Below the pieces are notes generated by a model that saw only the letters and a list, made by a program, of their open reading frames with translations, did not search any database and was not told the DNA's origin. A stretch of 64,000 nucleotides of DNA, taken from the NCBI GenBank assembly GCA_035772785.1, contig JAOCPU010000067.1, forward strand, positions 62,001 through 126,000, given 5' to 3'. The translations under genes and the position numbers were made by a program. Shown one piece after another: positions 20,341 to 45,404 of the stretch (positions are counted from its first letter, which is position 1; every line of letters begins with the position of its first letter). The stretch comes from Phlebiopsis flavidoalba. Its lineage: Eukaryota; Basidiomycota; Agaricomycetes; Polyporales; Phanerochaetaceae.

Positions 20341-21711
20341 ATGCCCACATTTGTCTTTGACGAATTACTACGGCGACCAGAGGGTCGCAAACAGCACCGC
20401 CGGCGTGCCCAGGACGCGTACCTGCCCGCATGTGGTGCCAGTGGGACCACCATCGGCGGCACATGTCCTGGCGTGCACGACCTCGACCCAACCTGTACCA
20501 ATTACCATCGAACCCCACAACGGGCACAGAATGTGGACTTGGCACACGTAAAGCGACTACAGTCAGTCCCGACGATGCCGGACACCCAGCATTTCATATC
20601 ACGTTTCAACGGTGAGCGGAATGAGGGCTTCCGCCTTTTGGACAGCTGACAATTTTCTGCAGGCACAACCGGGGTCAGTGCATATTGCTTGCTACTAGGT
20701 ACGTGTGGCCCAACTGTTTAGCAACGGGATTACCGATCGTACATGATCGTAACTTTCACGCTCGATGGCAATTTGGTGGGATCGTTCGAGCGCGAACCGC
20801 TGACAGGACTTACTTTTGACGCAATGGACCTAGAACCCACTAACCACGTGGTCGGTTTTTTCCACAACAGGATTGGAAAACAAGAGCACACATTCGTTCT
20901 TCACCGCACGCGGGCGTCAGCAACTCATATTTAGTGTTTGACTACTTCACATACGAGTAGGTTCAATCGGTGTATTGAGTTTTAGCGCGATGCGTTGCGT
21001 TGATATGACACTCGAACCGTGTAGCTATGAGGACCCACGCCTCCGCCTCCGTCGTCCTCGCTGGAGTGCCGTAAGCGGCGCGTCGTCCTACGCAAACCGA
21101 ATCAGGTTCGATGACCAGGCACCGCGTCCGTGCGGCACCTACGTCCCTCCGGCACACCCTTGCGCACGACAAGGCACCATCGAGCACACAAAACGCCCGC
21201 AGGCGCGATTGCGGGCGGGGTCATCGCAGGCGTGGCGGCGCTCGCGCTCGCCGCGTTTCGCGTTCTGGTTTCTTTGTCTACCGCCGGTCGGCGCGGCGCA
21301 AGGGCGACAAGATCATCCCACAGCGCGGGTACTCGCTCGACCAGCTCGACGGGAGCGCAGCATTCCACCGCCGCCCCATGCCGTTCATGGCGGGCATGTC
21401 CGAGGGTCGGCTACTCCGACATGTCCTCGAGTGCGGATGCGCTCATATCGCGCCGCGCGGAACACGGTGGGCGTGGCAGCGCGGCGGGGTCCTCTGTGCT
21501 CTCGAGCAGTGCGCCGTCGACACTGCCTGCGAGTGCGGACGAGAAGCGGGCGCTGCAGGAGGCGAGCCTCAAGAGGATGCACGAGATGGAGCAGCGAATT
21601 GCCGGAGGGAGCGTCGTTGACGCCTACGAAGATCAGAGCGTGCGGGGAGAGATTGATACCCTGAGGTCGCAGGTGGCAGAGCTGACTGCCGCCCCTCCGA
21701 CTGCAGACTAG
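20341..21711 (+). CDS. Lectin-like single-pass membrane protein, plus-array copy 1
   Basis: First of seven paralogs. The pattern in this family is an N-terminal Y-(I/V)-(I/V)-D-D-x-Y-G-D motif, a TWH-type motif, a TFxLDG motif, an (L/M)VFDY motif, a Ser/Thr-rich stalk, one membrane helix and a cytosolic tail. Here: DYYGDQRVANSTAG (20,367-20,410) and DDAGHPAFHITFQR before a GTGAGC donor near 20,612; GTTGVSAYCLLLG between that intron and a GTACGT donor at 20,700; then IVTFTLDGNLVGSFER (20,746-20,793); LVFDYFTYE near 20,934-20,958; a helix-like AGGVIAGVAALALAAF (21,216-21,265); and a tail ending LRSQVAELTAAPPTAD with stop at 21,711. No signal peptide was located. Frame changes occur in the N-terminal, FDY and stalk regions. 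Biochemical function of the family is not established; the outer domain resembles a carbohydrate-binding sandwich only by inference. Confidence 0.6.
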
Positions 21712-22069
21712 GAAGGGACAAGAGGCCAATCGACATTTGAGGAGCCGCCTCCGAGTTACGATGGTCCCAGACGACCTGAACGGAGATCTGATACGTAGAG
21801 ACGTAACCGCGATTGGCATCTTTAAACATATAGCCTTCATCTGTACCCATCTAACTTACAAGCTCTCATAAGTATATCGTACGAGATGCAGTGATACAGC
21901 GCGTCGCCTTACCGATATACCATTGGTGTCATCATCTAGCCACTGATTGACCCAAGCTTTCCAAGATGATCAGGAGTTTTTGAGAAATACTAATAACGTC
22001 AAGGATAACGATAGCGCGCTACGATCAGCTTCTCTCTTTCCTCTAGTTTAATCGTCCAAGCGATTTTAG

Positions 22070-23606
22070 ATGACCCTCTACATCATCGACGATGTGTACG
22101 GCGATTCTCGACCGGGATCTACCTCTCCTCCCACCGCAGTACGTTCTCCTGCACGGGTGGGACCCGCCAAGGGGGAACTGCGCAAACTGCACCCTCAAGA
22201 CAAAATATTCCTGCAGCTATTGATTTTACCAAGGTAGAAAAACGAAACGTGTCATACGGTGACTATGACAGATAGTCAGCCAGAAAATACCAGTGTAATC
22301 ATAAGTTTTGTCGGCGAGTATGTTCTTATTTCCGTTGGAACAGGTGAATTTGACTTGTCCAGGTTTTAGGTACTGCCGCTGTCGCTCATGTATTTCATTC
22401 TACCACCGGACTTGAGCAAATTCAACATCACGTCGTTCATGAACCTGACCTGCGAGATAGACGGAAAATTTATTGTTCTTATGCAAGAGATTCAACTAAT
22501 AAGTCCGAGTGGCAATACAAGCAATCAGTGCCAGGGGTGGTGTGGCGTATGGAATCTTCCACAAGAGGAGCATACATTTCGTCATTCGCCCTTTGCTGGG
22601 AGTTACCCATTCGTATATGGTCTTCGATTATCTTCAATATAAGTGCGTACGGATATCGGCTTGCGAATTTAATGTGGCTGAAAACTTGCATAGTTTCGGA
22701 GAAAAGACTCCTCCTAACGCGACTACGATGTCTGAAGGATCAGAGAGTATACACGCCTCGTCGTCCAGTGTATCGTCATCACCTTCCTATTCTGTTATCT
22801 CCCTTCTTCCTGCTCCTAGTTCCTTCAATGCTCCTCATGCATCTCCGACATTCGATGGACCAACCCGTAGTGCCGTCGCGACGGCAAGCGCCTCCAGTGC
22901 TTTCGGGAGTCCTCCTGTCACCGCGAAGAATTCCAGCACAAGAATTGTAGGGGGTATTTTGGGAGCAATAATAGGGGTCTTGGCTATGGCTCTGCTTGGA
23001 TGCTGTATAGTTTTAGTAAAGCGGAAGAGAGGGGGAGGACCGATCAGCGTACGAACAGCAACCTATGGCTACCTTCGAGCTTTCCTCGCAGAGAAATCCA
23101 CAACTCCACACTAACCTGATCAGATCAGGGACCGCGGCATTTAAGAATGAAGAGCCATACATACTCGACGCAAAAACGACTCGACAGTCGTCGGAACGGC
23201 AGGTAGCTCTAAAGAGTCAGAGATCTTCTCTGAGTACAATCCAGAGCCATCTCGCAAGGAGGGATTCGTGTATAATCAGCATACGCACTCATACGGACCT
23301 TCATTAGAGAGCACGGGGCATCTTCAGGAAGCCTTCCGACCTCAGGCTGTGGACAAAGACTCGGACTCAAAGGCGAGGGGGATAGATTCAAAGACGCGGA
23401 TTGATGGCGTGGGAATTGGCACAGCCGCCCGACGATTGGGATACCACGTGCTGAGTGTGATAGAGGAGCTCGTAGAGTCGGGAAATTCACACGAAAGCAT
23501 GACTTCGCGGTCACAGAGTGACCAGATTCGTGCTCCTACCAGACTCGATGGTACCGAGATCAGCCTCAAAGTACGTGTTGTACGAGTCATTCATAACATC
23601 ATTTAG
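22070..23606 (+). CDS. Lectin-like single-pass membrane protein, plus-array copy 2
   Basis: ATG at 22,070 opens MTLYIIDDVYGDSRPGSTSP, almost the same as copy 3. Across a frame change follow WDPPRGNCANCTLKT, then ILPPDLSKFNITSFMNLTCE with IDGKF (22,394-22,472), and PLLGVTHSYMVFDYLQYK (about 22,590-22,642). The stalk is Ser-rich (SIHASSSSVSSSPSYSVIS, 22,752-22,808) and is followed by the membrane helix STRIVGGILGAIIGVLAMAL and LGCCIVLVKRKRGGG (22,932-23,039), the basic stop-transfer being clear. The cytosolic tail probably runs, with frame changes, to 23,606 and is rich in Ser, Arg and Asp. The spacing to copies 1 and 3 is about 0.4 and 0.7 kb, in the same orientation. This is the copy in which stalk, helix and stop-transfer are best preserved in one frame. 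Confidence 0.7.
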
Positions 23607-24314
23607 GTGGATTTATTGATTTCGACTTTTAGCCTTAGTTTAATACCCATGTGGGAGTGGTTAATCGCTAGGCGGATGTCTAATATAACATGAGTTAGCT
23701 CAGGCCAAATTTAAAAGAAATAGTAGATCTTACGGCAAACGGAACATACATAAAACTGCATGCATGGAATAAAAAACAACGTCGACACAAAATGGCTACT
23801 CTATACAAAAATCGACAACTGCCCTGCCCATTATGTCTCATTAACTTGCGTCTTTTGTAATGATATCTTATGGTAGAGTAACTTCCGGTGGCTTACAGTC
23901 TACGTCAACATGAAATACGTTACATAAATAAACATGAGTCATGACCTCCCCGGAAAGACATATTTCCCTCGAGCTCTTGAGAATTGGTGTCCACCAAGGT
24001 GTACATTGTTATCTTTATGACGGATAGTACTAGCTTCCTACTTCTCCAGTCTCGATTGTGTGAAAGCTTTTTGTGAGGTATATCAAACGGTATAATGTGG
24101 CGTGAAATATTAGTGATAAATGCAGTGTCCTTAGATTCCGAACAAACATGTCGTTTGGGCCTTTCCGGCTACTAGTGAATTGTCTATAGTATAGCCTTCA
24201 TCTTAAAATGTTGCAGGTTTGTGCACAACTCGATATTAATAAATGGTGTCAGGAGTGAATAAAAGCGGCACACCAAGTCTATTAATGGTACACCAGTGCC
24301 AAGTTCATCATAGC
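23607..24314. other. AT-rich spacer between array copies 2 and 3
   Basis: Markedly AT-rich, with stops in all frames and no open frame of note. It holds the 3' flank of copy 2 and the promoter side of copy 3. Confidence 0.5.
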
Positions 24315-25921
24315 ATGCCGGGGCCATCATCTGATAATTCTGAAGGTTACCATTCCTCAACAACAAATATCAGGGCTCGTCGCAGTAGCCCTTTGCTTGT
24401 TCTTCCTTCTCCTCCAAACCGTTGAACGACCAGGACGCTATACTGGAACCCAAGATTCATACTATCTGAATGACACTCTACGTTATAGACGACCAATATG
24501 GTGATTCTCGTCCGGGATCAACGTCCCCTCCACCCCAGTATTACCCTTATCCAGACAATTGGGATCCGGTAGGAGGGACTTGCTCGGGTTGTATACTAGA
24601 ATCAAACCTAGTCCCGCCCATTAACCACACAAGGCGCAAAGAGAAACCTGGCATGCAGGAACCATGACGGAGAGCAAGCCGAATGATACTAGATATCATC
24701 ATCACATTTTTCGGCGAGTTTTTATTTTATTTTCTATTTTGTATAAACAGCTGGCCCTGACTTACGCTGACTTCAGGGAACTCCGCTACTGCTTATTTTA
24801 TCCTGCCGCCTGCAGACATCGGCCCCAACATCACATCGTTTATGAATCTAACCTGTGAGATAGATGGAAATCTCATTGGCGATCCTTATACAAGAATTGC
24901 AAGAGGCGTTAAGTGGCTATATCATCAATCTCTGCCAGGGTGCAGCGTATCCAACCTCGAGCACGCGGAGCACGAGTTCATCATCCGACCTTTATTAGGG
25001 ATTAGCCATTCGTTCATGGTGTGTTTGATTATCTCAAATACAAGTTGGTTCTGGTTCTTGATGCGGAGTTGACGTCAGCTGAAGAATGCCTAAACGATAG
25101 CTTTATTCCACTGGACACGGCATCAAGTATTGAAGCCGTAGGACTTAACACCTCAGTGGCTAGCAGCGCTCCAACTAGTCCTATATCTCCTCCTCATGTC
25201 ACTACGGTCTCTTCCTCTGTCGTCAGCACTTTCAATGCAGTTTCACAATTTAGCGTGCCAGGCGGCATACCTCCTAATTCTCCTACAGCCTCCTCTGTGC
25301 CCCACCACAATGCCTCCACCACTTCCGCTGTGATCAAGCACTATGAAAGGGAGTCTAAAACGGAGAGACTCGCAATCGCCAGTCACTCTCGGAGTAGTGA
25401 TTTCCTTAATCATTGTTCTGGCTGGGGTATTGGAAGTTCAAGAGGAGGAAAAGGGCAAAAGAAGCTATTCAACCCCATCTCAGAAATCGGCGCCATTCCC
25501 GCCGTGTCGGCCCTGCGTCGCCAGACATCATACACAGATTCAGATGGATTCGAGCCCCTAAGATCTGTCGAGTCAATCGCTCTCCGACAGCACAATCCTA
25601 CCATTTCTGTGCCTCAAAATGGAGCCCCCAGCCATGAGGCCCTGTTAAATTCTGTCGAAGGGCGTCGAGAATCGGGTACCGGCCCCGCACCCCCGCTGAT
25701 AAGGGATGTTCGACTGGCGAGAGAGATGGTGGAGAGTACGACCAGGAATGGGACGGCGATGACGCAGCCACTCGTCGGACCTGCACGATCGGTTGGAAAA
25801 ACCTTGTGGCGGAGTTAGAGGGCATGAGTATGACTTTTTGCGTCGACGAGAGGAGATGACACACCCGAATTCCGAGCCCCCGCCTAGTTATCGGTCTGCT
25901 GGATCACAGCACAGACCCTAG
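24315..25921 (+). CDS. Lectin-like single-pass membrane protein, plus-array copy 3
   Basis: A candidate ATG at 24,315 leads, one frame over, into a hydrophobic GLVAVALCLFFLLLQT (24,373-24,420) that looks like a signal peptide. The outer domain follows: MTLYVIDDQYGDSRPGSTSP at 24,469, WDPVGGTCSGCILES (24,560-24,606), ADIGPNITSFMNLTCEIDGN (about 24,812-24,871), HEFIIRPLLGISHSFM and a FDYLKYKLVLVLDAE segment at 25,024. The stalk is Ser/Thr/Pro-rich (25,150-25,340). The membrane helix TLGVVISLIIVLAGVLEVQ (25,394-25,450) lies in a different frame from both stalk and tail. The tail ends EPPPSYRSAGSQHRP with stop at 25,919-25,921. It contains an IGAIPAVSALRRQTSYTDSD segment and many Ser/Arg residues. 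Confidence 0.7.
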
Positions 25922-27352
25922 GTTGGTAAGGCACAACGGATTCGTAACGTCTCGGATTTTGTTGAGTATGAATATGGTCCGTATATATTTATATCAGAGC
26001 TACGTTATCACGCTTGCAAAGGAGTGAGGGAGTGGTAACAAAACAAGTCTTTCCAGTGGTTGTTCAAGTCTCGTAGTGCTTCGAGCGATTGCAGCGTCGG
26101 GATGAAAGGAACCTACGCCATGAACAAGTATGTTCCTGACGCGTTGTCGAACGTCTACGCCCATAAATCAATGTAGTCGTACTCACCACACCTTGGGCAT
26201 CGCCATATTGTGCGTAGTATTCTGGGTTGTTCATTTCAGCGGAGTTCCAGGCTTGAGAGAGTAAGGCATTGTGTGATTTGAGTATCGTGAATCGGGCAGT
26301 TGAGCTATTCAGCGGGCACAAACATCGCATCGTGGGGCTGTACCATCCGTTGTGCACTGCCAAACGTCCATTGTCTCAGTATGTGCCAGTAAGTGGGGTC
26401 ATAGCAAACGATGAGTGAGTGCGAAGATAGATGGGATTGTGGAAGGCTACACAACCATCTCACCTCATCACAGGTGAAACAAGCATACGGGCATGCGATG
26501 CATTCACAAGATTCCTATATTAATGAAGACGGCGAGGTTTACACTGTCTCACTGCTCTGGGGATGCAAAGAGGTAGCAGCGAGATCACTTACGAGACACA
26601 GAGACTACAGTCCCAGCTGAGGATCCTATTGGGGAGCTAGAGAGCATGAGTTAATTGTTTGTACGGCGAGATGTGTCAGCTCTACGGACCCTCGAGCCTC
26701 CCGCCTACGTATCCGGTTCGCTTCATAAGCCCATATACGCGTGCGATCTTCGACTTTCGCCGAAGAGGTAGAGAGATGTGGCCCTGAAGGAAATTTAGCA
26801 TTGGTGATTTTCTCCAGGTCACCAGTCATATATGGGCGGTAGATAATAGTATTCACATATACTGTCAGAGTTTACGACCTGTGTCCACAAGTAGTGTGGA
26901 CGATCCATGGCCAGTGAGCAGGTAGAGACTAGGGAAGTCACGACAAGAGCTCGATCGACTCGGAAAGCAGCGACAAGCCCATCACAAGCGTGACAACGCA
27001 CGTGAGTGATCGTCACGCGCCAATGTGTGACCCTGCCATTCGACAATTTCGACCTCGACTGCGTCAAGCAAAGAGGAATCGAGCTTTGGTGCGTTCAACA
27101 TATTTCTCGACTGATCAATTAATATTTATGTGATCACATTCGTGCTCAGCGCGGCGCCCTGAGCACCCTGTTTTCGTCCCATTCTACCTGTGCGCGTTAA
27201 GATATCGCGACCAGCAATTCAATGCGTGATAGTCGCAGTGCACCACAGGGATCCTGCCCCCCCCTGTGTGGTCCCCCCGCGAACCCACAAAGAGCAATTC
27301 AGATGAGGATGGCGGGCTTGAAACGGATGTTTGGCCACTCTTTCCCTTTGTC
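25922..27352. other. Spacer with relic sequence, upstream of xanthine dioxygenase gene
   Basis: Apart from the tail relic at 26,605-26,760, there is only an unrecognised minus-strand frame of 99 codons (26,064-26,363) that contains a GTGAGT-type donor after EYYAQYGDAQ. The 200 bases before 27,353 are the presumptive promoter of the dioxygenase gene. Confidence 0.35.
26605..26760 (+). pseudogene. Tail-only relic of a lectin-like membrane protein
   Basis: This stretch encodes DPIGELESMS, a stop, then LFVRRDVSALRTLEPPAYVS in one frame. It parallels the end of copy 3, VAELEGMS then a stop, then MTHPNSEPPPSYRSAGSQHR, including the junction in the same place relative to the EPP-x-Y motif. No outer domain or membrane helix of the family was found in the preceding 700 bases, so this looks like the leftover C-terminus of a fourth plus-strand copy. 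The short length limits certainty. Confidence 0.45.
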
Positions 27353-28850
27353 ATGATCATTGAAACAGTCCCACTCCGTACTGCCCACGGCCAAACCTAC
27401 GAAATTTGCGGATTTCTGGCCGAGAGGTTAGAGTTGTCAACCCCGGATGTGCTGTCGAGAGAACAATTTCGAGAGATTGAGGAAACTACTATATAAGGTA
27501 TGGGTTTTAGTTTCCATCGTCAGTACCTCTCACAGCGGCTTGTAGCATTCGATCCTCTTGTTCCGGGATGTGGACGTGAACCCAGAGCAGCAATATGGGC
27601 TAGTCAAGGTATCAAGCCTCTTCTGACCCGCAATGCCAACTTTCACACATGTTGCACCACAGGAATTTGGACCCATCTTGTGAGAGTTACGGACACGGAA
27701 AATAATAAGGACCGGGCAGGAATAAACAGTCCATTCTCCATCCGTACCTTAAGACTACGTCCTAGGGTTCCTCAAGTTACAGCTCATTGGCCATGGAACT
27801 GTCTACGATCACGAAGGTATCCCGGAAGACACATCTCAAACATGCATCTCATCGGAGCTTCCACAAAAACGCACGTCTCGCAGGACGATGAGACAAAACG
27901 GTGTTACTCGCTTCTATCGCTGGCATATGGACGCTTTGCCCTCTATGATCTCGCCCTCCTAAGGTCACCACACTTTATGGCATCTCTGTTCTCAAAGGGA
28001 AACCCCCAGATTGCCGATATGACGATTGTACAGGCGATGAACTTGACTGGTTCCGCTTGGCCTTTACTAAACCGCATTCGTCTCTGGAAAGACCATGTTT
28101 GACGTACTTCCGCCATTGAGCTCAAGAGCGTTTGCGGTACGCTCCCAGAGTTAAATATGCGCCACATCCTTTCATCTGGATGGGCCACTGCACGCGCGAA
28201 GGCGACCGGACTGGGGATCGAGAACGAAGGATTGGAGGTGCCCCTAGATGCACTTCCGCCTTGGGAAGAGTCAAAGGTGCAAATTTATCCGCTGGTACGT
28301 TCGATCTTGTGTCATCTATGCGCTACTTCGTTTGACCTTTCGTGACCAGCTTTGGAAGAACCCGATGACGGGTGGTCTTTCATCTCCAGGCTCACCCCTG
28401 TGGTGCACGCGAGCTCTTCATCGACCCCCCAAAAGTACCCAGAGGAACGTGTGAAGCGAGAAGGTTCTCTATATCCGACGGTGCACATAATTGTCGTATC
28501 TTGGGCTCGTCAGAGAGCTGTTATATCAGCACTGCAGCGGCACCGGAATTGCTCGGCCCTGACGTACGCAAACACATTATCAAAGCTAGTGCATATTGAT
28601 CCTAAGACTATACGTAGCTTTGTCTATCACACCTATGAATGGTATGTATGTATTAATCTGATCTAACGTGAAAAACCAAGTGCTGACGACTCTTCATAGG
28701 CGCGAAAAAAAAAAGACATGGTACTCTTTCACAACCGCGGTGTTTTACACTCAGTTGTCGGTCATGTTGCGGAGGGACAAACCCGTGCTTTTCATCATAT
28801 GACACAATCTACTCGCTGATTCTTATGACGACCCCATCGGTCCCAAACCA
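27353..28850 (+). CDS. xanA-like: Alpha-ketoglutarate-dependent xanthine dioxygenase (TauD/TfdA fold)
   Basis: XanA of fungi is a non-haem Fe(II)/2-oxoglutarate dioxygenase that converts xanthine to uric acid. ATG at 27,353 begins IIETVPLRTAHGQTYEI, then LSREQFREIEET. Later pieces, across frames: DVDVNPEQQYGLVK (27,570-27,611), SILHPYLKTT, QLIGHGTVYDHEGIPEDT (27,783-27,838), RFYRWHMDA (27,908-27,935) with the iron-binding H-x-D, PPKVTTLYGISVL, TAFVSGKTMFDVLPP (28,068-28,115), VKYAPHPFIWMG, ATGLGIENEGLEVPLDALPP with WEESKVQIYPL (28,198-28,296), WKNPMTGGL and FQVHPCGARELFIDPP. The distal site LFHNRGVLHSVVGHVAEGQT then RAFHH (28,724-28,798) gives the second His and the 2-oxoglutarate Arg. DDPIGP marks the end near 28,850; the exact stop is unsure. 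Motif order and spacing fit XanA well. At least seven frame changes interrupt it. Confidence 0.85.
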
Positions 28851-29378
28851 CGAAGACGTCTTGACGTGGGCGTAGTACGCATAAACCACGAAGTCTGGAC
28901 ATTCATTGGGGAGAGATTCCAAGATGGATACACCAATAAGCAGTAAACAAGTGCTGAAACGTATAAAATGACGGAATACCATGGAACCGGGGCGGGGGAT
29001 CCTAGACCAATGTTGGCTGCGTGACGAGAAGTACATGTTGAAAAAACTGGACAATGAATTCTGTGAATGACAGCTATGGTTTGACGTAGGTCCGGAGAGC
29101 GACAATTAATCAAGGTTCCTGCTCATGTCGGTGGCACCTCGGTCCGACAGCCACATTACAAATGCAAGATGAGAAAATTGGAATATCCGTTACATATCCT
29201 ATAGCTTTATAGTTACAATCCGACTGCATATTCTACATTGCTGGTGCCATTAAAATGTTGTGATGCAAACGTTTTATTCCCGGGGGCGTACCCGAATAGA
29301 CTGTAGACCGCGCCCCGTTACAAAGGAGAGCGTTGGGTCTCGAGGAGAAGCGATGATGCCTAGAGAATATATCAGTAT
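28851..29378. other. Convergent intergenic region
   Basis: Separates the 3' ends of the xanthine dioxygenase (+) and ATP sulfurylase (-) genes. A few short minus-strand frames (96-98 codons at 28,809-29,113) overlap the end of the dioxygenase and are not supported as genes. Confidence 0.45.
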
Positions 29379-31071
<1,693 letters not shown>

Positions 31072-31316
31072 GACTGTCGAAGATCGGCCAGTGCGTTCGT
31101 GGGGGACAAAATCAATGGATATGAGATGCTTGTGAAAGCTAATTAGTCTATCCTTGGTGTGTACAAGCGGTGAGATCGATCGAGTACAGTCAGGCCATTA
31201 CCCGTGAAAGCACGAGAAGGACCTGCACGAGGGACATTATGAAATAGGTTCAGGCCATAAGTAAAAGGTGACCCTCTTACTGTCGTCCGCGCTACCAGTT
31301 CAGCTGCTGCTCCCTT

Positions 31317-32470
31317 GGCTTAATTGGTCAACCGCTCCCGTCCGCTTCATATCACGTCGTTCCCACTCCCAGCCGTGTTTCTCCGCATAGCTCGGAGGAG
31401 GATCCTTGACAAGTCGCCTCATGGTCTTCGTCAATGAGGTGCCGGACGTACCGCCTTGGACGGTTTGATGCTAAGTGACAAACAACCCTTGCTCGCCATA
31501 ACGCAGGAAGGAATAGCCGCGACACCAGTTGAGTTAATCATTGTCCGCTTGAAGCCGCGGCACACACGAACTCCGATGTTGAGAATACATCCCTCGTCGA
31601 TGTCGGCGAAACGCAGAACCGCCCGCCGCACGGGCTCCCACCACCACTTCGACGAACCGGCCCGCGGCCTACGGCAGTGGATGGAACGCTTCGTCAGCCT
31701 GCAGAACGTGCCACCTGCCGTCGCCGCAGATGTCGCCACGGTGGAACGCTGCCGACGGGCTGGCTGAGGAGGACCTTGTCAAAATGACAGAACGGGCATG
31801 CTCGCCGCCATGAGGAAGTAAGGACAGGATGCGCGTAGTGCCAGTCTTCGCAGACCTCGACGGTTGAGGGAAGGAAATGGGCCGCGCAGGAAGAAGTACG
31901 AGTTGATACACCAGGCGGTCGCGCCAACCGGGTCGCGTCTAGAGTGAGGGTGAAGATCCGCGTCGAGACGAGATAGGCTGGCGCGGTCCATCCAGCGTCC
32001 GCGTACGCTTCGCGCTGGACCCCTTGGAGCGTTTATGTGTGCCCTGCCAGGAAAGCGCCCATCGCGCGCGACAAGGTAGATCGGCCGCGCAGGACATGGT
32101 AGTCAGTACGCGTCCGAGGGCATACTGGCTAGCTGGGATCGTTGAAAAGGAAAGTAGTTCCACTGGGACGGAAGTACACGCGCTTGCGTGTGCGCACTTC
32201 TTCTGCCCTCTGCTTCTGGAGTGAGGAGGCCTGACCTCACCGTGCACGCGCCTAGCAGGAGTGTAATGACGTCAATCTCTTTTCGCCAGTGGGAATAGCG
32301 AGAGCAGCGATGTTCTCGTGGGTGCGTTCTCGGATGGCATGCCTGTCGAGGTAAATGAACTTGATGTCTTGGAAGTCCGACAGTACGGATGTGGTGAAGG
32401 AAGACCTCGAAACAGGGCTGCCCGTTGGGACATGTAGAGATTTTTGAACACCGTCCAGCATGGAGCGTGC
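31317..32470 (-). CDS. Unrecognised broken gene with PPPSYAEKH C-terminus
   Basis: A chain of minus-strand open segments: DIKFIYLDRHAIRERTHENI (about 32,315-32,375), AFLAGHT and VQREAYADAGWTAPAYLVST (about 31,960-32,030), TVEVCEDWHYAHPVLTSSWR (about 31,805-31,865), and a C-terminus RRLVKDPPPSYAEKHGWEWE then RRDMKRTGAVDQLSQGSSS with a stop near 31,317. The PPPSYA ending recalls cytosolic tails of membrane proteins, including those of the array family, but no membrane helix or other family motif was found. The gene ends about 250 bases before the presumed MET3 start and points toward it. Product unknown; whether all segments belong to one gene is uncertain. Confidence 0.25.
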
Positions 32471-34711
32471 GAACTCGACGGTAGTCTCTGGAAATGTGGG
32501 AATGCGACGTTGCTTTCAGAGGTGGTGATGACCGTTGTTGTTTTGCTTGGTCGAATCCTTGCGGTCCGCGTTCAACGGTTTCTGAAGCTTGAGGTCGTAT
32601 GTGTCATGGTGTTCTGAGTGGTTATCGGTGTACGGTAGTAGGTGGTCGCTGGAGAATAGGTTCTGGCTGGAATGGTGCCGCAAAAGAAGCTGCGTTGCGC
32701 TAGGTATCGTGCATGCAGGAGTGCTACAGGGTCGACAGACGGGCACCCAGCAAGGGAGTCAATGAAAGCGAGCTTTCGTCAGATTCGAGCGCGATGCGTG
32801 CTTAGTCCCATATTGCGAGAAAAGTTACAGACTTTCCCTCGACACTGATCACTGTTTTCTGTACCCTCTGCGCTGGCTGGGCTGTGGCTGAGGCCCCGCT
32901 CAACAAGCGCCAAACTACAATGAGACTCGTAGGGACCGTTTGGATGCGATACTAGTCCTGATAAGTGATCATGGAGCATGCCGGAGTAATACGAGAGAGC
33001 AGTACCAGAGAAACTCACGTTATTCGTTAGGTCCTTCTACGCGTTCCACGAAAAGCCAGCTCGGAGAGTCTGCAGACGTCCCGGAGCGCCGTTCAGAGGA
33101 GGAGAGATTAAGGTGTGGGAAGGTAAGAATCAATAAGAGCGACCAGGATGTGATAAAAAGAATGGTGTTTGAATCCGTCTCAGGGCTTCGAATGCCGTTC
33201 GGACTACGCTTTGCCGTCAGCAGACTGATCAAATGGAAACGTAGGTGGCGTCCATTGACTTACCCCGATGGCACAAGTCAGTAACAAACGCGGCACTGTA
33301 AATCCACTCGAGCGCGAGGTGGCGCGATTGAACTGGTGGGTAAGCACAGAGAAACTAGAGCGAGTTGGGGACTCCGAGCTATTGCTGAGGTCCTAGACGG
33401 GCTTTCGTTCAAAGGAGATTCAACATAGAGGCAGCTGATCTCGATTTCCCTCATTGGTATTTGGCGGCGCACCTCCTCGTGAGCGGGCCCCTTTCTCCGT
33501 CACGCCACGTAGAGTTTGAGCAAAACCTTGCAAGTTCAGCGTTTGAGCGTGTTTGGAACAACTACCAGCCTCATTTGTGACAACCGGTACACCAGCCTCA
33601 GTACAATAGCGAACCCTGACCCGCCGCATATTCTTGTGAGTGTGCCAAACGTTTCTTTTGTCTTAGAGTTAACCTGGTGCCTGCAGCGGACATAGGGTCG
33701 CCATCTTTCGTGCTCAACATGTGCTTCGGCCCTGTTCGACCTTTGCCTGGGATTTCCCTTTCACGCACGCTTGGCTCTGCTAGGAGACATGCACAACCAT
33801 CAACGGTCGTGTGATTTGTGATGGTCAAGATGAAAATCGAAGAACGAGCCCGATGTTGACCGGCAAGTAGACCGGGAGCGCAACATTCATCCGTACCCTG
33901 CGTTAGATTCTACGTGAGCTGAAACCTTGTCACGTGCTGTTTAGCGAGATTGTGTCTGATCTGTGTGCTTCGCCTGGGACTGCATCTATACGCTTGCTCC
34001 ACGAAGTAGTCTCACACACAACGTACCAACTCTGCTCGCAGGATCTCATACGGCCTGTAATGACAGCCGCGCAGCGCAACGGATAGCCTCACTCCTCCGT
34101 TCAGGCCTGCGTTGTGCACATTTATTCGTGAAGGAAAAACAGAGGCTACAACTTTGCAACTGACCGAATTGCAACGTATCAGTTCAGTCTCAAATGTTCG
34201 GGAAAGTGGTAGTCTGGAGACGGACCTTTGCGAAAGTATCCTGATAGACAGAATGCTACGGCGAAAACACAAGTCTATTATCGACTCTCCTCGACCGAAC
34301 AGCGTCTGGTAACTGGGTAGACGTTGATTGAGAAAGCGCGCTACTGCTTTGCTGCCATGGGTAATCATTCCGGCCCCTCCACCACGCCTAATGTCCACAC
34401 TCGTCACCTCTACTCGCTCTCAGGATTTGTAGCCTTCGCGTCCGCAACAACTCCACGCCAGAGATTCCTGGATCCGCTGCGCACTCTGGATACCTACCAG
34501 CCTCTTGCTGGTTGCTGGCTGGACTGCCGGTACATCCTGGTGCTTCTATCTTCTGGTAGTATGCATGAAGTAGCGACGTCGAAAGGACTTTGTCCGGTTC
34601 TTCATGGGTTTGTACCCATCTAGGCCCATCCGAGGTATGAAAAAGCATTTCTATGGGTCCTGCTCTGGGGTCCGCCCATACGTCTCAGAGTGCATATTGG
34701 GCACAAGTCAA
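32471..34711. other. Long stretch without a supported gene
   Basis: Only short frames on both strands (up to 131 codons at 34,012-34,407, minus), with no domain, signal peptide or splice chain. Together with its flanks this is one of the emptiest parts of the window and lies directly inside the accessory island. Confidence 0.4.
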
Positions 34712-36100
34712 TTAGACTCGCCTCATGCCTCGGTGGGCGGCTGCGAACACCTGATTTGACGGAAAACCTGTTCGAAGTACCTCTCGCATTATGTGAAGGA
34801 TCATCTCTTCACGCTGACCTCGGGCCGAGCGATATGCGCAAGTGAACGGATCCGTGGGGGACGGGTCGGACTCTGCGAGCTCTACATCGTCGCCGACGTG
34901 CACCACAAAGTATCGCAAAGCGCCCAAGAAGGGACAACTCCGCCACGACTGCATCCGCCTATCCAGCGGGCCATCGAGGGTGAGATTGATGTGGCTTTGC
35001 CTGACGTGGCTGTCCCCGGTAACCCTGTTGGATCACCGTAGCCTGAGGGGTATGTTGAGTGATGTGTGTCACAGTCTCGTCAGAGTGGCCAAAGAAGTGG
35101 TTTTGGCCATCTCGACATGGGTAGTTGCTGGTCCGATTCCACCCAGAGTGTGATTGGAAAGACGATGTCGGACGTTTGGGGGGGGTTAATCAACTTGGAC
35201 AAACCTCGGTGCGTTTCCCCTGCGCTAAACCGATTGCTGCCTCCTTCGAATCGCGAGGTTGTGTGTTGTGGGACCCTGGGCGAAGAAGCAGAAAGCGCCC
35301 TGGCGCACAAGCCGCCTGGGCAATGGTTGATGACCCGGTGGCTCGGTGAAGTGCTAGTGGGAAAACGGTTGGAACACAGGGGATTGGTGCGTGCGGATGT
35401 CTGTCACCAGTCCGTCGGGTGGAGGAGTCGGGGTCCTCCCAAAGCTGTTACTTTTGTCGGTCACAATGGCCCCAGCAATGGTGAAACTATGCCGGACTAC
35501 TCACTCGTAAGTTAATATAGTGCAAAGCAAATCGCAATTATCGGAGCTATTATGATGAAGGATTGATTGGGTTTGGGGGTCCCCGTCTTCACCCGTGAGG
35601 CCATGTTTAAATGACGAAGGTGTTGTCTCTTTTTGTTCTAGTCCGCTTCTGCTGAACACGACAGCATTATAGGTCCAATCCGAGTCCCGACGTTGTCGTT
35701 TGCCGTTGGTAGGGAATCGTACGATAACTCCGTCTAACTGGGAATGTCATGTTCATCTGGTGAATGATACCGCGGGGGCGTCGGAGTTTGGGAGGAAGCA
35801 AGCAGTAGGCGGTCACCGATGTTGCCTTGAACCCAGGTAAGTCGGATTTTGTAAGCTACCTCTGTTGCTTAACCGCAGTGTAATTGAATGAAATTGTTAT
35901 GCTCGTCAATGGATCCCCAGGATTCACTGTGCATCGAATGCCATGTCCCGTTCATAACTTGCGAGTTGTCTGTCTGTACAGGGATATTTGTCCCCCTGTG
36001 CAACCCGCCGCATGTCGATTGTTAACCGTGGAAACAGGATCCCCCATTGAGCCGTAGCAGGCCAATATACAGCGCATCGGGAGAAGCCGAGCTGGTCCTA
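34712..36100 (-). CDS. Lectin-like single-pass membrane protein, minus-array copy 1
   Basis: Reading leftwards: CGGLHRGTNIPVQTDNSQ then VMNGTWHS (about 35,945-36,018), the family's TWH motif; VNPGDPLTSITISFNYT one frame over; CFLPNSDAPAVSFT (about 35,757-35,800); QLDGVIVRFPTN (about 35,710-35,745). The FDY region is reduced to a trace (LLCTILTYE near 35,510). A candidate stalk and helix are SPSMARWIGG through LGALRYFVVH (about 34,890-34,985), and the tail DVELAESDPSPTDPF ends REEMILHIMREVLRTGFPSN and MRRV with a stop at 34,712. Frame changes are more frequent than in the other copies, and no YGD motif was found, so this is the most decayed full-length copy. The helix assignment is tentative. 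Confidence 0.45.
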
Positions 36101-37063
36101 TTGGTCACCATAAAAGTCGTCGAAGACCAAAGGTTGGCATGGGGTAAACTAGGTCGGATACACGCAGTGCAGTGGTTAAGAGTAACTATATACTTCACTG
36201 GCCATCTGTTCGGGCTTCGCTTCAGATGTGGCTCATAATACTCATCACCATTTCCCGCATTTAGGGTTTGTCTGGACGTCGTTAGATGTCCATGATCTTG
36301 GGGGCGAGGTCGGCCAGAGTCAACTCCGGTTTCTGGACCGTCGGAAGCGTAATCTTTACAACTATCCCAATACACGAAATTGCGTGATACACGTCAACAC
36401 TTACTATCAATCGTGACTCATTATGATTGTAGGCTTGATTCGTGCATGTAACTACCAATGGTGCATCACAGCTGCCATGGCATCAAGAGCAACAATCAAG
36501 ACTGCACTAGTATCTCATTTTGACAGTGCCGGTGCTACCATATGGAGGCCTGTGAGTGCCTACACATCTACATTCTGCTCGCACGCTAATCGCTCGTGCA
36601 TTCTGACGCGCTTTGCTGACCCGAACGTCAAGCTCACCCGAACACTATCAAGAACACATCTTTTCCCCCCACGTTCATTAGAGGAATGTGTTTTTCATCG
36701 AAGAGAACGCTCAGAAGTAAATCGCGCTCCCGACGAGAAAAGCAATCAGAGATCTTTGAGTTGAACATACATACGGACCACAGTTTTCAAGTTGCTCTCC
36801 GGTCCCGTTGCTCAGCTACCACGAGCGTGTCAAATGTGCTAAGGCGAGTACTCTGGTATAGGGTCTTATCTTCGCGATCGAATGGCGTCCTCATACGTTC
36901 GGCAGAACCGAGCTATCGCTGCGCTGTTCATAATTATCTCGCGCGTCCCCATCGCCATCCACAATGCGTCCCTTTCTGTACTAATGGTCTCTGTCGCACT
37001 CTCCGGGCTCCACATACTGGTTGTGTTATCTCTCCTATTCGTGTCCACATTCTTGCCGCTCTC
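36101..37063. other. Spacer between minus-array copies 1 and 2
   Basis: Holds unassigned frames on both strands: 117 codons minus (36,022-36,375) and 113 codons plus (36,423-36,764). The left part should contain the 5' end of copy 1. A hydrophobic plus-strand frame starting at 36,882 overlaps the tail of copy 2 and is probably a shadow. Confidence 0.3.
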
Positions 37064-38308
37064 TCATCGGGAGATGACAAGCGGGGCCTCCTCCCATGGG
37101 GGATCTGTCCGTCGATCTTCACAGGACTTTTTCTGCGTTCCACACACTGGCCGAGTTCCTGCTCGACATCGTAGAGGGTGGTGGCATTGCTGGGGAGCCT
37201 CTCCTCGTCCCTCGCGTCCTTCTACGCCGCCGCATGCAGCAGAATAAGACGAGCCGCGAGCAAGAAGACGGCGACGCCCACCGATGCTGGCACCTACGAT
37301 CAACATGGTTGAGGGGCCAGCTTGGCTGCTTGGGGTGAGGCAGGACGCGTCGTGGGGCCAATGCTCGTCTCGGGCGAGAGATGTTTTGGTACGGTCCTGG
37401 TGAAGATGGAGATGAGCTCGATTTTGTAGGTTGTGGATCTTCCGAAGCTATGGAGAGCCGATGAATATCGACGTTAACAGATCAACTTCAGTGCTCTCAC
37501 TCATATGCAATATAATCAAAACGGAAAAAAACGAGTTACTTTGAAGAAATATTGAATTCGGGTTCCCCGTAAGATTTCGATCCTGAGGAGATATTACAAA
37601 GGTGTGCTCTCCGTTTTCTAGACCGTCTTGTTGAATACAGCGGCGTTATAGGTCCAATCTGTGTCTGATGCCCGCGGCTTGTCGTGTATAATAGGTCCCA
37701 ACGATGACTCCGTCCAGCTCAAAAGTCATGTTCATTTGCCGACGTGATAAAGTGAGAGTCGAGGTTGGGTGGAAGCAAGCAGTATAGGGTCACTGATGTG
37801 CCTATTTAATTTGTAGGTCATATTTGTGGGTCGTATCTGTTTTATATGGGTGAAGCCCGCTAGATTTACTTACCTGTAAATGTAATCGATACGTTCGCAG
37901 GCTCTTCCCCAAACAATCGCCGTAACCGAATGCCAAGTGCTGTTCGAGTAATCCACCTTCGAGTAAATCTATAACCGCTACCGCAATATTCGCAGGCTTT
38001 CAGTACAGCCGGCGCATGTTCCATGAGGGGCATTCCATCGACCCGTCGCTGGCAGGTCACAATCAAGGGCGGCGGTGAGCTCGAGCCTGGCCTCTCTGGG
38101 TCTCCAAGGTGGGTCTCCAACATCGTCGAAGATGTAAGTGGGCATTGGATATGCAAGCTTTGAGTCGCGAGACGAACAGTTTGTTCATGACTTTATACTG
38201 ACACCTGGCCATCTGTCTGATGCTCCCAGGCACCGGGCTTATCAATGAAATTATCGCCGTCTCCATCTCACCGCCATGCATCTGCCCAATGTCAAGATGG
38301 TTGTGCAT
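37064..38308 (-). CDS. Lectin-like single-pass membrane protein, minus-array copy 2
   Basis: The outer domain starts TYIFDDV near 38,130, an altered form of the YIIDDVYGD motif, then RWNAPHGTCAGCTESL, SNSTWHSVTAIV (about 37,930-37,965) and NVSITFTGK ending at a GTAAGT donor near 37,875. WTESSLGPIIHDKPR and SDTDWTYNAAVFNK follow (about 37,615-37,715). A Thr/Pro-rich stalk (TTRPASPQAAKLAP near 37,320-37,365) leads into the membrane helix MLIVGAS and GVAVFLLAARLILLHAAA (about 37,225-37,306), then a basic stop-transfer. The tail continues DEERLPSNATTLYDVEQELG and KSPVKIDGQIPHGRRPRLSS. Frame changes occur in nearly every segment. An ATG lies at 38,308 but is not clearly the true start. Confidence 0.55.
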
Positions 38309-39031
38309 GAGTACGTAGAAGCTTGCCTTCTGTGCTGATTCATCTCACGAACCCGACTTTGAATCCAAGCACAACGGAGGCAATCACATAACTCCCGGTA
38401 CCACCGTTCAGAGGCTTGAGTCGGCGTGTTTCAAGTCAATAACTCAAATCCTCATGTGAAAACATCACCCCTCGGAAAGTGCCCCGGCCGAAACCTTACC
38501 AGAGGAGTGCTTGTATGGCTTGCGGAGGCATGCGCAACCAATACGACCCCACAACCCGACCTCTTCTTCGTCAGTGCTGTAACCCTGTTCTACATTTGCA
38601 AGTGACCTATTACAAACAAAACTAAAAAACGATTTTTTCCACCCTTGCATCATCCCACAGAAACGCAGTCTCGCCTACCGAACGTGTGCTTCATCCCTTA
38701 CCAACTCTATATGTGTCAAATAACTCGGCCATCATATCTTTGTAATTCTCAGGATGTACGCTAGGGTTGCCACTATCGGCTTTTGTGGCGAGGTATTCAT
38801 CATGAGATGAACACGCTACCCACGCTATGTCATTCTAAAACTACAAGCGAAACACCCTGCCTGCTGAAAGGAAACGCCCGAGGAGAGAAATTCATCATCC
38901 GCGCTTGCATCGTCGTGAAGACGGCGAATCTGGTGAGGTTGTCAGCTGCAATATTATAGATTATGAAAATCATACATTCAATTCACGTCAAATAATAGAT
39001 CTACGGGACTAGCGAAAACTCGGGTGGGGGA
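38309..39031. other. Spacer between minus-array copies 2 and 3
   Basis: No supported gene. A 62-codon minus frame (38,465-38,653) is the longest clean one and matches nothing I recognise. Confidence 0.4.
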
Positions 39032-40703
39032 TCATCTCTTCTCGAACCGGATTGCATCTTCATAGGTTGGTAAGACCGAAACTAGCGGCATCCTGTTGCT
39101 CAAGTCTCTCGCTGCCGCGCCAAATCTCGACCAAAGCCCATTTATTCCTGCCCTTAAACCATGTCCATGGCCCGCTGCCCTAGATATCTGGGCCATTCTG
39201 CTGCTCTCTCCGTCACTTGCTGCACCTCTGGATGCCTCCCTCGAGGTCTTTGCCCAACGGAAGCTGCCACGGTCCCCCTTCCCCTGTACGTTCCCACCCG
39301 CGCAATATCGGAGTCAGTTTCTCTAAGAGATTCCTCCTGTTCCATTTGCTCGAGTATCGCAAGAGCGCTGGGAGGTTAGAGGGACCACACACCAGCACCA
39401 GATGAAACGGTCGATCCTGGGCTCCGCAGCTTCGCTTTTTTGAGCGACTGAATTCGTATGCTCAACAGAGTTGTCTCCGGATCCCTCGATCTGGCGTATG
39501 GCCGTCGCGGAAAACGTAGGGGACTGTCGTCGTCCCCCCTTTGACGATTCCTACGGCTTACGATGCACCACGTCGAGAGCAGAATGCTAAGTAGGATAAC
39601 AAGCCCACCCGCGACACCACCTGCGATTACGTCGATATGTGAAGAAGAAGACTTGGACGGGTTTGGGGGATTGATCGAATTCGTGCTGGAGGGAAACTGG
39701 GATCTTTGTGCCTGTCGATGTGGACGTTTCTGATTTTATCGAGGTCCCTAGAGTTGAATTAGAGGCTAAAGAGCTAGGGGCTGAGGAGCTAGAGGCTGAG
39801 GAGCTAGAGGCTGAGGAGCTTGATGGAATTGCACTCGGAGATAGCGGAGGCGTTAGATCCTCGAGTTCAAAGCTGTTACACACAGATTGGTGAGTAACTT
39901 CATAGTCAGACGTCGATCAAGGTACAGCCGTAACTAACTCGTAAGTGATGTAGTCAAAAACCAAGAATGAGCTGTCGGCGTAGAACTGTGCCCCTAAGTC
40001 CCCGTCCTGACCTTGAGGCGATATCGAAAACGTGTGGCTTGTATTTTCCAGTCCTGTTCGAGTAAATACTTTCTGGTTGTAAAGCCATTGGGTATTACTT
40101 GGACTGTCTGGTCTTCTGAAGGAGCCTACGGTTTCTCCGTCCAGTTGAAAGGTCATGTTTGTGGCCGACGTGATGTTCTCCGGGGCAAGGAAAGGTGGAA
40201 GCAGGCAGTACGTGCGCTGACGGATGTACCTGAACTCCACGTTAAATTAGCTCCATCTTCCGGCTAGATGAAGTGAAACTCACCAATAAATGTAAACGTC
40301 ACATTTGTCACCGGTTCTCCAGGATTTACCGTGACCGTATGCCATGTCCCATTCATTGTTTGGGTAGGGTCGATTGCTATGTGGATGTTACTTGCCTTTT
40401 GAGCATTGAGGACATGTGCCGAAAGCCCCATCCCACTGGTGTTCAGCAGGTAAATAAAGCGTGGCGATGGAGAGTTTGAAACCTGGTCTCTGGTCTCCGT
40501 ATACATCGTCGATAATGTATGTTGGGTGGCATGCCAGTCACACACGCGGTGAGCTTCAAGATGCGACGCGCGCGGTCAGTGCACTGTTGCTTTAAAGAGT
40601 CTGTCGCAGGTTATAAATCTCAGCCGGCCTGAGCCTGAATGAGGTGCAACGTTTCCCTGGCACCCACAATCACGGGCGATATGGCAAGCCAAAACACTAT
40701 CAT
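39032..40703 (-). CDS. Lectin-like single-pass membrane protein, minus-array copy 3
   Basis: Best-preserved minus copy. ATG at 40,703 opens MIVFWLAISPVIVGARE, a plausible signal peptide. The outer domain reads PTYIIDDVYGDQRPGFKLS (40,475-40,530), WDGAFGTCPQCS, IDPTQTMNGTWHTVTVNPGE (40,325-40,384) and VTNVTFTFIG before a GTGAGT donor near 40,283. Next exon: YCLLPPFLAPENITSATNMT then FQLDGETVGSF (40,125-40,215), NTSHTFSISPQ, and SSFLVFDYITYELVTAV (39,920-39,975). The stalk is a run of Ser and Ala encoded partly by a 15-base tandem repeat. The helix HIDVIAGGVAGGLVILLSIL with LSTWCIVSRRNRQR (about 39,537-39,640) is unambiguous. The tail ends LVSVLPTYEDAIRFEKR with the stop at 39,032-39,034, comparable to the PPPSY tail end of plus copy 3. 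Confidence 0.75.
39765..39824. repeat. 15-base tandem repeat in Ser/Ala stalk
   Basis: Four adjacent 15-base units on the plus strand: GCTAAAGAGCTAGGG, GCTGAGGAGCTAGAG, GCTGAGGAGCTAGAG, GCTGAGGAGCTTGAT. On the coding (minus) strand they give repeated Ser-Ser-Ala-Ser-type blocks of the stalk of minus-array copy 3. Such repeats allow rapid change of stalk length. Confidence 0.9.
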
Positions 40704-41109
40704 CTACTCAATTTGGACATTGCTCGTTAGATCGACTGATGTTTTAGCAGATCCGGGAGTTTCATCATCGCGTTGTGAGTCTGCGACAAAACCTATATGC
40801 TTAGTCCAATGGTCTGGACGATGAAAAGGTCGCATAGTACTTACTGGGATCTCGAAAGTAACTGCGTGGGCCATGGATGTTTGCTGATGGTAAGAGGAAT
40901 GTCTACCGCCATTCCATGCCGAACATTGTGTATCAATAGTTATCAGGGCTGTGACTGGCGTGCAAAACATTTAAATCATCACATACATCATACTTACTTC
41001 CGTTCATACTTCCGTTTATTTTGTGTCGGGTCTGTCAACCGGGAGATGGGGGCAAGCCTTTCATGCGAATATATAGCTACTGTTGGCTACGATTTCGATT
41101 ATAAATACA

Positions 41110-42510
41110 TCAAGAGAGCTGTTGACGCCATTTCATTTCAATGGTGTCCCATAGGGTTCTATCTGAGATATCCGATGCTAGCGCCTCGAATTGGGAACGT
41201 GACTGAGATTGTGCTTGTACCTCAACACCCAACTGACCCAAAGTCCTTCTTAGAGAATAAGTCATCTCTTTCGCTCTCAAATTATCCACTTCGGGCTGGA
41301 GCGCCGTCTTCTTTCCTCTTTCCTCTTCCGTCTCTCCTCCCGTTCCGTTCGTTTTCCTCTCGGCATTGTTCTCCACATGTGGCAAGATACTGGTGTTATA
41401 GTGATGTGGACATGATCTTCAGCCACGGAGGTCTCGCGGGACGCGGATTATCACGGCTCTGGTGCTGGAGAATGACCCCAGTGCGTGCGACGTATGGGGT
41501 ATCACCAGGTGCCGTCTCTGACTCCGTACTAGATCTGCTGAGAGACGATCCTCCTGCCTCTGGGGGGGAAGTTTTACGGCTCATAGAGCGTGATATCGAT
41601 CAAGGTAAGGAGCAGTATCGATGCTCCCGGAGAAAATACTCCCGCCTATGATGAAGGCCCTCGATTCAGTGTGGAGTGGAGTCATGGCGTGGACATCAGT
41701 TGACCGCGTGCGAGGTTGCCGGGCGATGTAGCTGGATAGGTGAGGGGCGGCAGTGTAAGAAGTAAAAGACTCCGTGAGCGACTAGTTCTAGTGTCCGTTG
41801 ACATCTCGGATATTGCGTTAAAACGAAAATGAGGATGTAGTGATTGTAGAATTTGGAGAGCGCGCACGTGTCTGCGTTTATTTGTTTCATTATCGATTGT
41901 TACTAGATACTGACGGCTACTTACTCGTATAGCGGCATAGTCAAAAATCATAGTGGACGGCGTGGCTTCGGCTCCAGACCCGCTAGGGTTGAGAAGGAGT
42001 TCAAGCACCAGATGGTGTGTTCCTTGTTTTTCAAGGCCTGCGGCGGTAAAAACACCATAGTCATACGTCCAGATCGTTAGTATTGTTTGATGCCCCCTCA
42101 AAAAATCCGTAAGGAGACCCATCAAGCTCAAAGGCTATATGTGTTGGTCGTCCTGCTAAAGATAGGTTGAATGTTGCCCGGTGGTAAAATGGCATAGACA
42201 CTGACGCTGACGCCTTCAATATTATAGCAACATGATTATTTGAGGGTGAAAGTTCGAAAATGAGACATAACCGATGAAGGTGATGTGAATGCTATTTCGT
42301 TCGGGCTCGTGGCGCATTGTGATCGAATGCCATGTACCCATCGTCGCCTTCTCGGGATCGATAGCAATTGGCCAGTCATTTGCCAGGGTACACGTCGAGC
42401 ATGTCCCACCGATAGGGTCCCACTGCGTTTTCAAGATCGAACAAAGGTGCAGGGGATTGCGAACCAGGACGCTGGTCCCCATACACATCATCGATGATGT
42501 ATGCGTTCAT
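41110..42510 (-). CDS. Lectin-like single-pass membrane protein, minus-array copy 4
   Basis: ATG at 42,510 opens MNAYIIDDVYGDQRPGSQSP; then WDPIGGTCSTCTLANDWPIA with IDPEKATMGTWHSITM (42,310-42,425) and NSIHITFIG near 42,270. After an intron: DYGVFTAAGLEKQGTHHLVL (about 42,000-42,060), and STMIFDYAAIRV (41,925-41,960). The membrane helix is not clear; RAFIIGGSIFSGSIDTAPYL near 41,600-41,660 is a weak candidate. The tail KTSPPEAGGSSLSRSS (41,530-41,580) and a heptad-like QPEVDNLRAKEMTYSLRRTL (about 41,240-41,300) follow. Frames change at least five times. It is the outermost of the four minus-strand copies; upstream (42,600-42,720) a possible signal exon ends QLAAPVG before a GTGAGT donor. Confidence 0.65.
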
Positions 42511-45054: not shown

Positions 45055-45404
45055 ACAGGGGGGGTGCACGCGCGCAAGCGCTGATATCACCTGGGTGTGG
45101 GGGGTGGTTACGACCCCACGTGACCTGGACCCCAGCCATCTCATGCTTCACGGTGGCTGCGTGCTGCATTGTCCTGCTAATAGGCAGGCAGAAGACGTGG
45201 TACCACGCTTCTCTCTGGCTCAATTCTACGCCTCGATGAGAGCCTTACATACGAAAGATTCATGTACAGCCACACAGAGGCTCAGACATGTCGCTGGACG
45301 CCGAAAGCAAGCACACGGGGTCCGCGCTGATCTTGGGCGTTTCTACAGGCGCTAAAGAAACGACCAAGGTGGATTTCCTCGATTGCTCGGGCGCTGGCCC
45401 CCTG
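45055..45404 (+). repeat. Dispersed repeat copy B (partner at 15,261-15,582)
   Basis: Collinear with the reverse complement of 15,261-15,582 over its full length, with scattered single-base differences and an extra block of about 20 bases (AGGCAGGCAGAAGACGTGGT) after CATTGTCCTGCTAA. Outside the stated limits the flanks diverge at once on both sides, so the limits mark a mobile or duplicated unit rather than a larger duplication. Confidence 0.9.

What the first reader, a model, noticed from the sequence alone, without database searches (positions are those of the whole stretch)
20341..42510. Two opposed arrays of lectin-like membrane-protein paralogs around a metabolic core
Seven genes share one plan: a Y-I-I-D-D-x-Y-G-D-type start (clear in four, altered in two, not found in one), a TWH motif, a TFxLDG-type motif, an FDY motif, a Ser/Thr/Pro stalk, one membrane helix and an arginine-rich or PPxY-type tail. 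Three lie on the plus strand (20.3-25.9 kb) and four on the minus strand (34.7-42.5 kb), so the arrays point at each other with XanA- and MET3-like genes between. Local duplication followed by divergence is the simplest reading. A surface-sensing or non-self-recognition role is conceivable, but it is inference only: no function is established for this protein plan.
Basis: partly seen in the sequence, partly recalled or inferred. Interest (0 to 1): 0.75.

Follow-up and report, generated by a model that had tools for sequence, protein, structure and literature searches.

The report
Clustered fungal surface-protein genes without signal peptides
A wood-rot-type fungus carries seven related genes in one spot, apparently for single-pass membrane proteins whose outer part resembles sugar-binding modules; they belong to an old, diverging side-branch of an unstudied mushroom-fungus family, and this branch seems to lack the usual export signal.

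The parts
20341..21798 (+). Gene P1: ectodomain about 20341-20957 (intron about 20612-20662), stalk, membrane helix about 21217-21276, coiled tail, PPPSY at 21748
   Evidence: tail vs P0014, E 2.5e-10; stalk-to-tail vs P0014, E 1.4e-16; 18 frameshift events in the domain alignment, the most of the seven
22070..23606 (+). Gene P2: ectodomain about 22070-22642 (GC-AG intron about 22314-22369), Ser/Thr/Pro stalk, membrane helix about 22956-23015, basic juxtamembrane; no PY motif found; 3' end uncertain
   Evidence: in-frame TAG directly before the ATG
24470..25921 (+). Gene P3: ectodomain about 24470-25040 (GC-AG intron about 24714-24776), stalk, membrane helix about 25379-25438, PPPSY at 25880
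   Evidence: in-frame TGA directly before the ATG; sister of P2
41100..42510 (-). Gene M1: ectodomain about 42510-41930 (intron about 42271-42214); helix only plausible across a frameshift (about 41.66-41.58 kb), Arg-rich stretch about 41.37-41.30 kb, both by eye; 3' end uncertain
   Evidence: no helix or PY motif by scan
39032..40532 (-). Gene M2 (best preserved): ectodomain about 40532-39939 (intron about 40283-40230), Ser-rich stalk with 15-bp repeats 39760-39819, membrane helix about 39636-39577, C-terminal LPTYEDAI at 39073; its ATG is one base out of frame with the domain
36866..38145 (-). Gene M3: ectodomain about 38145-37517 (intron about 37873-37802), membrane helix about 37287-37228, tail similar to P. 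gigantea P0002 with a TYEDAI motif whose LP lies one base out of frame, near 36900
   Evidence: tail vs P0002, E 1.5e-6
34700..36140 (-). Gene M4: ectodomain about 36140-35504 (intron about 35873-35826); no membrane helix found; FDY and the first Cys not seen; an LPSY at 34320 lies beyond the likely gene end and was not counted; 3' end uncertain
29321..31008 (-). MET3 (ATP sulfurylase)-like gene between the two groups; lacks about 440 bp at 30358/30359; nothing ties it to the array

Best explanation
An old birth-and-death cluster of seven membrane-protein genes of an uncharacterised Agaricomycete family, in a Phanerochaetaceae-like fungus. Shown: common ancestry, shared intron, a distinct clade in which no signal peptide is seen, helix in 5 of 7, PY motif in 4 of 7. 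Predicted: a jelly-roll-type beta domain. Inferred: the one helix acts as a reverse signal anchor (N-terminus out, basic tail in), so the domain faces the wall or environment on a glycosylated stalk; the domain binds a glycan of the fungus' own wall, of wood or of a neighbour; the cytosolic coil clusters the proteins; the PY motif recruits an Rsp5/Nedd4-type ubiquitin ligase that removes them from the surface. They would work like Wsc/Mid2-type wall sensors or tethered adhesins, with paralogs diverging in what they bind.
Confidence: 0.42

Rival explanations
1. Ubiquitin-ligase adaptors: the main job is the cytosolic PY tail, which brings Rsp5 to transporters or other cargo, like yeast Ear1/Ssh4/Bsd2, and the beta domain recognises the cargo's outer face.
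For: C-terminal PY motif in 8 of 9 full-length homologs and 4 of 7 window genes; membrane-anchored PY adaptors exist (PMC2810449, passages).
Against: No SPRY or arrestin family among those listed at E up to 1 for the 14 homologs; a PY motif is equally a degradation signal for the protein itself.
Confidence: 0.2
2. Decaying cluster: several of the seven are pseudogenes and only two or three work.
For: Frameshift events in the domain: P1 18, M4 12, M3 11, M1 8, P2 7, against 4 in P3 and M2; M4 has no visible helix, FDY or PY.
Against: Actin has 6 in 335 codons here; the method makes up to 4 false events at 53-67% identity and up to 10 near 35%; seven other family members in this genome show 4-15. 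P1 keeps a tail matching P. sordida (E 2.5e-10).
Confidence: 0.15
3. Intracellular variant: loss of the signal peptide turned the protein round or moved it to an internal membrane, so the beta domain works in the cytosol.
For: Start codon at the same place in 4 of 4 annotated Phanerochaetaceae proteins and in 6 of 7 window genes after bridging (in M2 the ATG is one base out of frame); in-frame stop directly before the ATG in P2 and P3; no convincing leader before the ATG in any of the seven.
Against: Basic residues still follow the helix and the PY motif is kept in that clade; sequons and C-x-x-C are mostly retained.
Confidence: 0.13
4. Non-self or competitor recognition receptors, diversified by selection on the outer domain.
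For: Clustered, divergent paralogs (31-54% identity among the seven).
Against: No strain comparison, no selection test, no effector domain or known allorecognition partner; divergence is equally expected from age.
Confidence: 0.1

Closest known systems
Uncharacterised Agaricomycete single-pass family (Ganoderma P0005, P0006 and the environmental P0004 close to them, Collybia nuda P0003, Phlebia brevispora P0012, Mycena vulgaris P0013; own-genome copies on C9, C21, C43)
   Same: D-D, W, C-x-x-C, T-W, F-x-G signature invariant in 14 homologs; stalk; helix; basic flank; C-terminal PY motif
   Different: A hydrophobic leader precedes the domain in P0003, P0004, P0006 and P0012 (by eye; P0005 and P0013 show none clearly) and, above chance, in 4 of 7 own-genome copies; the window clade starts at M-x-x-Y and is separated by a long, fully supported branch
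Phlebiopsis gigantea PHLGIDRAFT_455630, _455356, _114397 and Phanerochaete sordida PsYK624_139350
   Same: Same clade, same start without leader, 40-62% (P. gigantea) and 43-58% (P. sordida) identity to the window domains; the three P. gigantea proteins come from a contig of the same length (353,910), so probably one scaffold
   Different: Fewer copies recovered (the searches are capped, so a lower bound); order and neighbours could not be seen
Yeast Wsc1-type wall sensors
   Same: Ectodomain / Ser-Thr region / one helix / cytosolic tail (PMC9024836, passages)
   Different: PAN/Apple-fold WSC domain there, predicted jelly roll here; no PF01822 match listed for the 14 homologs
CBM35/CBM6 carbohydrate-binding modules
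   Same: Predicted jelly-roll arrangement
   Different: No Pfam CBM match listed, 5-18% identity in the 50 structural alignments, binding site not examined

Membership tests
Agaricomycete D-D/TWH/FDY single-pass family | ectodomain signature and common ancestry | tested here: met
Agaricomycete D-D/TWH/FDY single-pass family | stalk, one helix, basic tail with PY motif | tested here: inconclusive
   helix in 5 of 7 and PY in 4 of 7 window genes; assembly errors blur the rest
Agaricomycete D-D/TWH/FDY single-pass family | N-terminal signal peptide (not universal in the family) | tested here: not met
   a convincing leader before the ATG in 0 of 7 window genes and in none of 4 annotated clade members; outside the clade it is clear in 4 of 6 database relatives by eye and in 4 of 7 own-genome copies. 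Hence 'variant', not plain member
WSC wall sensors | WSC domain PF01822 | tested here: not met
   not among the families listed at E up to 1 for 14 homologs
CBM35/CBM6 | jelly-roll fold | tested here: inconclusive
CBM35/CBM6 | sequence family match | tested here: not met
   no Pfam CBM family listed; profile search of PDB sequences listed none among 33
CBM35/CBM6 | carbohydrate binding | not testable with these tools
   needs a binding assay
Rsp5 membrane adaptors (Ear1/Ssh4) | PY motif | tested here: met
   4 of 7 window genes; 8 of 9 full-length homologs
Rsp5 membrane adaptors (Ear1/Ssh4) | SPRY domain | tested here: not met
   not among the families listed at E up to 1 for 14 homologs

The most novel reading that the evidence does not exclude
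A Phanerochaetaceae-specific, signal-peptide-less set of glycan-reading surface receptors, exported by N-tail translocation through their single helix, kept as an old clustered repertoire that diverges by birth and death to tell own from foreign hyphae or walls.
Probability: 0.07. Interest if true: 0.78.

Novelty: new variant of a known kind. Interest (0 to 1): 0.42.

Why it matters
The parent family occurs in several mushroom-forming and wood-rot fungi, has no Pfam family above cut-off in the scans made here, and seven term searches aimed at it listed no paper on it (listings only). Its plan (glycan-module-like head, stalk, helix, PY tail) makes a testable proposal for how these fungi read or grip their surroundings. 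The leaderless clade poses a clean cell-biology question: how a folded domain of about 170 residues would cross the membrane without a leader.

Tried and rejected
Decay of the array as shown by frameshifts: rejected as unproven once actin showed six events of the same kind. A large palindrome around 30.4 kb, suggested by the opposed groups plus an inverted repeat at 15.26-15.58 / 45.06-45.40 kb: rejected, the repeat is dispersed (12 places on 11 contigs) and no other left-right DNA match reached E 1e-3. A hidden signal-peptide exon: P3 has an in-frame TGA between the nearest upstream AG and the ATG; P2's TAG could itself serve as an acceptor, so it is not excluded there. Leader test: 4 of 7 other own-genome members show one (at most 1 of 200 shuffles as high), 3 of 7 do not stand out (20-26 of 200); of the window genes five have no candidate and M1 and M3 weak ones (11 and 32 of 200). 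Long-branch artefact in the tree, of which the tool warned: rebuilt without Collybia and Mycena, the clade stays 100/99. An eighth copy at 26.6-26.75 kb: only 19 nt (E 0.12) and a PPAY-like stretch; left open. Pfam on the family: best TM_ErbB1 24.2 bits against a cut-off of 27.1, which reflects the helix. The PDB sequence profile search has a top row of E 2e-7 (8pjs_A) with no stretch passing on its own and otherwise mostly helix or coil matches; not used. XanA by TauD: no hit in the window, though frameshifts could hide it. The first two protein searches scored only the candidates sharing most words (7993 and 7990), so family lists are lower bounds. Figures labelled 'distance from C-end' are miscomputed; I used the printed last 25 residues. 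The frameshift aligner was allowed GCGA donors because I had seen them in P2 and P3, so it is no independent proof of GC-AG introns.
Full report
Setting. The window is contig C67:62001-126000 of a 36.28-Mb, 129-contig assembly. Its nearest protein relatives are in Phlebiopsis gigantea and Phanerochaete sordida, both Phanerochaetaceae, so I take the source for a fungus of or near that family; this is inference. I call the plus-strand genes P1-P3 (20.3, 22.1, 24.5 kb) and the minus-strand genes M1-M4 (42.5, 40.5, 38.1, 36.1 kb).

Assembly quality. In the same genome actin, read against yeast actin, needs six frameshift events in 335 codons while its residues are otherwise normal (first seen). 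Frameshifts in the array therefore say little. The aligner itself makes 0-4 false events at 53-67% identity and up to 10 near 35%. The seven window domains need 18 (P1), 7 (P2), 4 (P3), 8 (M1), 4 (M2), 11 (M3) and 12 (M4); seven other family members in the genome need 4-15. P1, M3 and M4 may be damaged, but that is not shown.

The observation. Segments of all seven loci match another of them; ectodomain tblastn marks these seven places and no more in the window at E up to 0.01. The aligner puts an intron at the same place of the domain in all seven; in P2 and P3 it has a GCGAGT donor, in the others GT. After bridging, 17 columns are invariant across the seven genes plus five homologs and identities among the seven run from 31 to 54%; TWH, DG and FDY are in 5, 7 and 6 of 7. 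Membrane helices were found in five of seven and the PY motif in three by scan plus one interrupted by a base.

What family. The first search (read-through M2) gave 4 hits, the profile search 12 (three of those 4 and nine new), the region search 3 (one new): 14 distinct proteins. P. gigantea (3), P. sordida (1) and four environmental pieces begin M-P-T-Y-(I/V)-F-D-D; in three of the environmental pieces (P0009-P0011) sequence before that Met exists but is not conserved between them. The other six (three Ganoderma or Ganoderma-like, Collybia, Phlebia, Mycena) are outside that clade; four of them show a leader by eye. In this genome a Phlebia query finds further members on C9, C21 and C43; of the seven that I modelled, four have a leader above chance and three do not stand out, while none of the seven window genes has a convincing one. 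A P. sordida query also raises many weak stalk-plus-helix matches elsewhere, which I did not count as members.

Tree. In 24 ectodomains the 12 of the leaderless clade form one side of a branch with 100/99 support. P2+P3 100/99; P1 with P0014 99/95; M2 with P0002 and P0001 85/88; M3+M4 90/51; M2, M3, M4, P0002 and P0001 together 80/89; M1 unplaced. The tool warned of long branches; without Collybia and Mycena the same groups have 100/99, 100/99, 98/96, 95/87, 91/69 and 93/90. Since frame-bridging could pull peptides towards their template, I also swapped templates: the clade (100/100), P2+P3 (100/97), P1+P0014 (88/82) and M2+P0002+P0001 (92/88) stayed; M3+M4 and the five-row group did not; M1 moved next to P2+P3 (93/88). 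P1's tail, not used in the tree, matches P0014's tail (E 2.5e-10) and M3's matches P0002's (E 1.5e-6). So the cluster's lineages predate the split from those genera, and only P2/P3 is a clear local duplicate. P. gigantea's three proteins come from a contig of one and the same length, probably one scaffold, which suggests clustering there as well.

Topology. P2 and P3 have a stop codon in frame directly before the ATG, and clade members of two other species start at the same residue, so the missing leader is likely real. The basic flank, the kept PY motif, the C-x-x-C and about twofold sequon excess (27 against 12 in the window domains; 48 against 26 in relatives outside the clade; 7 against 5 in tails) argue, not strongly, that the domain is still exported, which would need the helix to act as a reverse signal anchor. 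Neuregulin as a precedent is recalled; of papers on type III proteins I saw only the listing.

Function. The most economical mechanism is a Wsc-like plan: head that touches the wall or a foreign surface, glycosylated stalk, helix, clustering coil, ubiquitin-controlled turnover. Only the plan is evidenced. A PY adaptor, a decaying set, a cytosolic variant and a recognition repertoire remain as rivals in that order.

Surroundings. The MET3-like gene (29.3-31.0 kb) aligns with three other MET3-like loci, all of which hold a stretch of about 440-530 bp that is missing here at 30358/30359; an HxAH pattern is found in all three and GRDHA in two of three, neither in the window copy. PF01747 finds C2 twice and C60, not the window. 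PP2C (51.4-52.8 kb) and KTI12 (12.3-13.1 kb) pieces were the only Pfam matches among ten window pieces scanned. Nothing ties these genes to the array.

Verdict. A real, old gene cluster, new as a described variant (no leader seen, so far found only in Phanerochaetaceae and environmental pieces), in a family on which seven aimed searches of open-licence papers listed nothing. Interest is moderate: good biology to test, no demonstrated mechanism.

Noticed in passing
window 29321-31008 (-), break at 30358/30359; other loci L001, L002, L003/L004: Four ATP-sulfurylase (MET3)-like loci in one fungal genome; the window copy lacks about 440 bp of its middle while keeping both ends.
   Followed up: partly
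window 15261-15580 (+) and 45056-45404 (-): Dispersed repeat of about 300 bp, 12 places on 11 contigs (78-100% identity, two of them short pieces), perhaps a small transposable element.
   Followed up: partly
whole assembly (actin C102:41046-42163; RPA135-like C26:151.8-152.9 kb): Single-base insertions and deletions in essential genes: probably an unpolished long-read assembly; any pseudogene call here needs a control.
   Followed up: yes
C9:706.8 and 786.8-794.3 kb, C21:410.4-413.3 kb (also a weak hit at 285 kb), C43:283.9-284.5 kb: Other clusters or singles of the same broad family; four of seven modelled have a clear leader.
   Followed up: partly
window 26600-26760 (+): Possible relict of a family tail: 19-nt match to the P3 tail and an EPPAY stretch; not significant.
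   Followed up: partly
window 22314-22369 and 24714-24776 (+): P2 and P3 both have a GC-AG intron (GCGAGT donor) where the other five have GT, fitting their sister relation.
   Followed up: partly
P0006 (Ganoderma boninense); P0001, P0002: The UniRef name 'Siderophore exporter MmpL4' of P0006 looks like a misannotation; P0001 and P0002 seem to hold retained introns.
   Followed up: no
window 51416-52795 (-) and 12331-13071 (+): PP2C phosphatase and KTI12 pieces flank the region.
   Followed up: no
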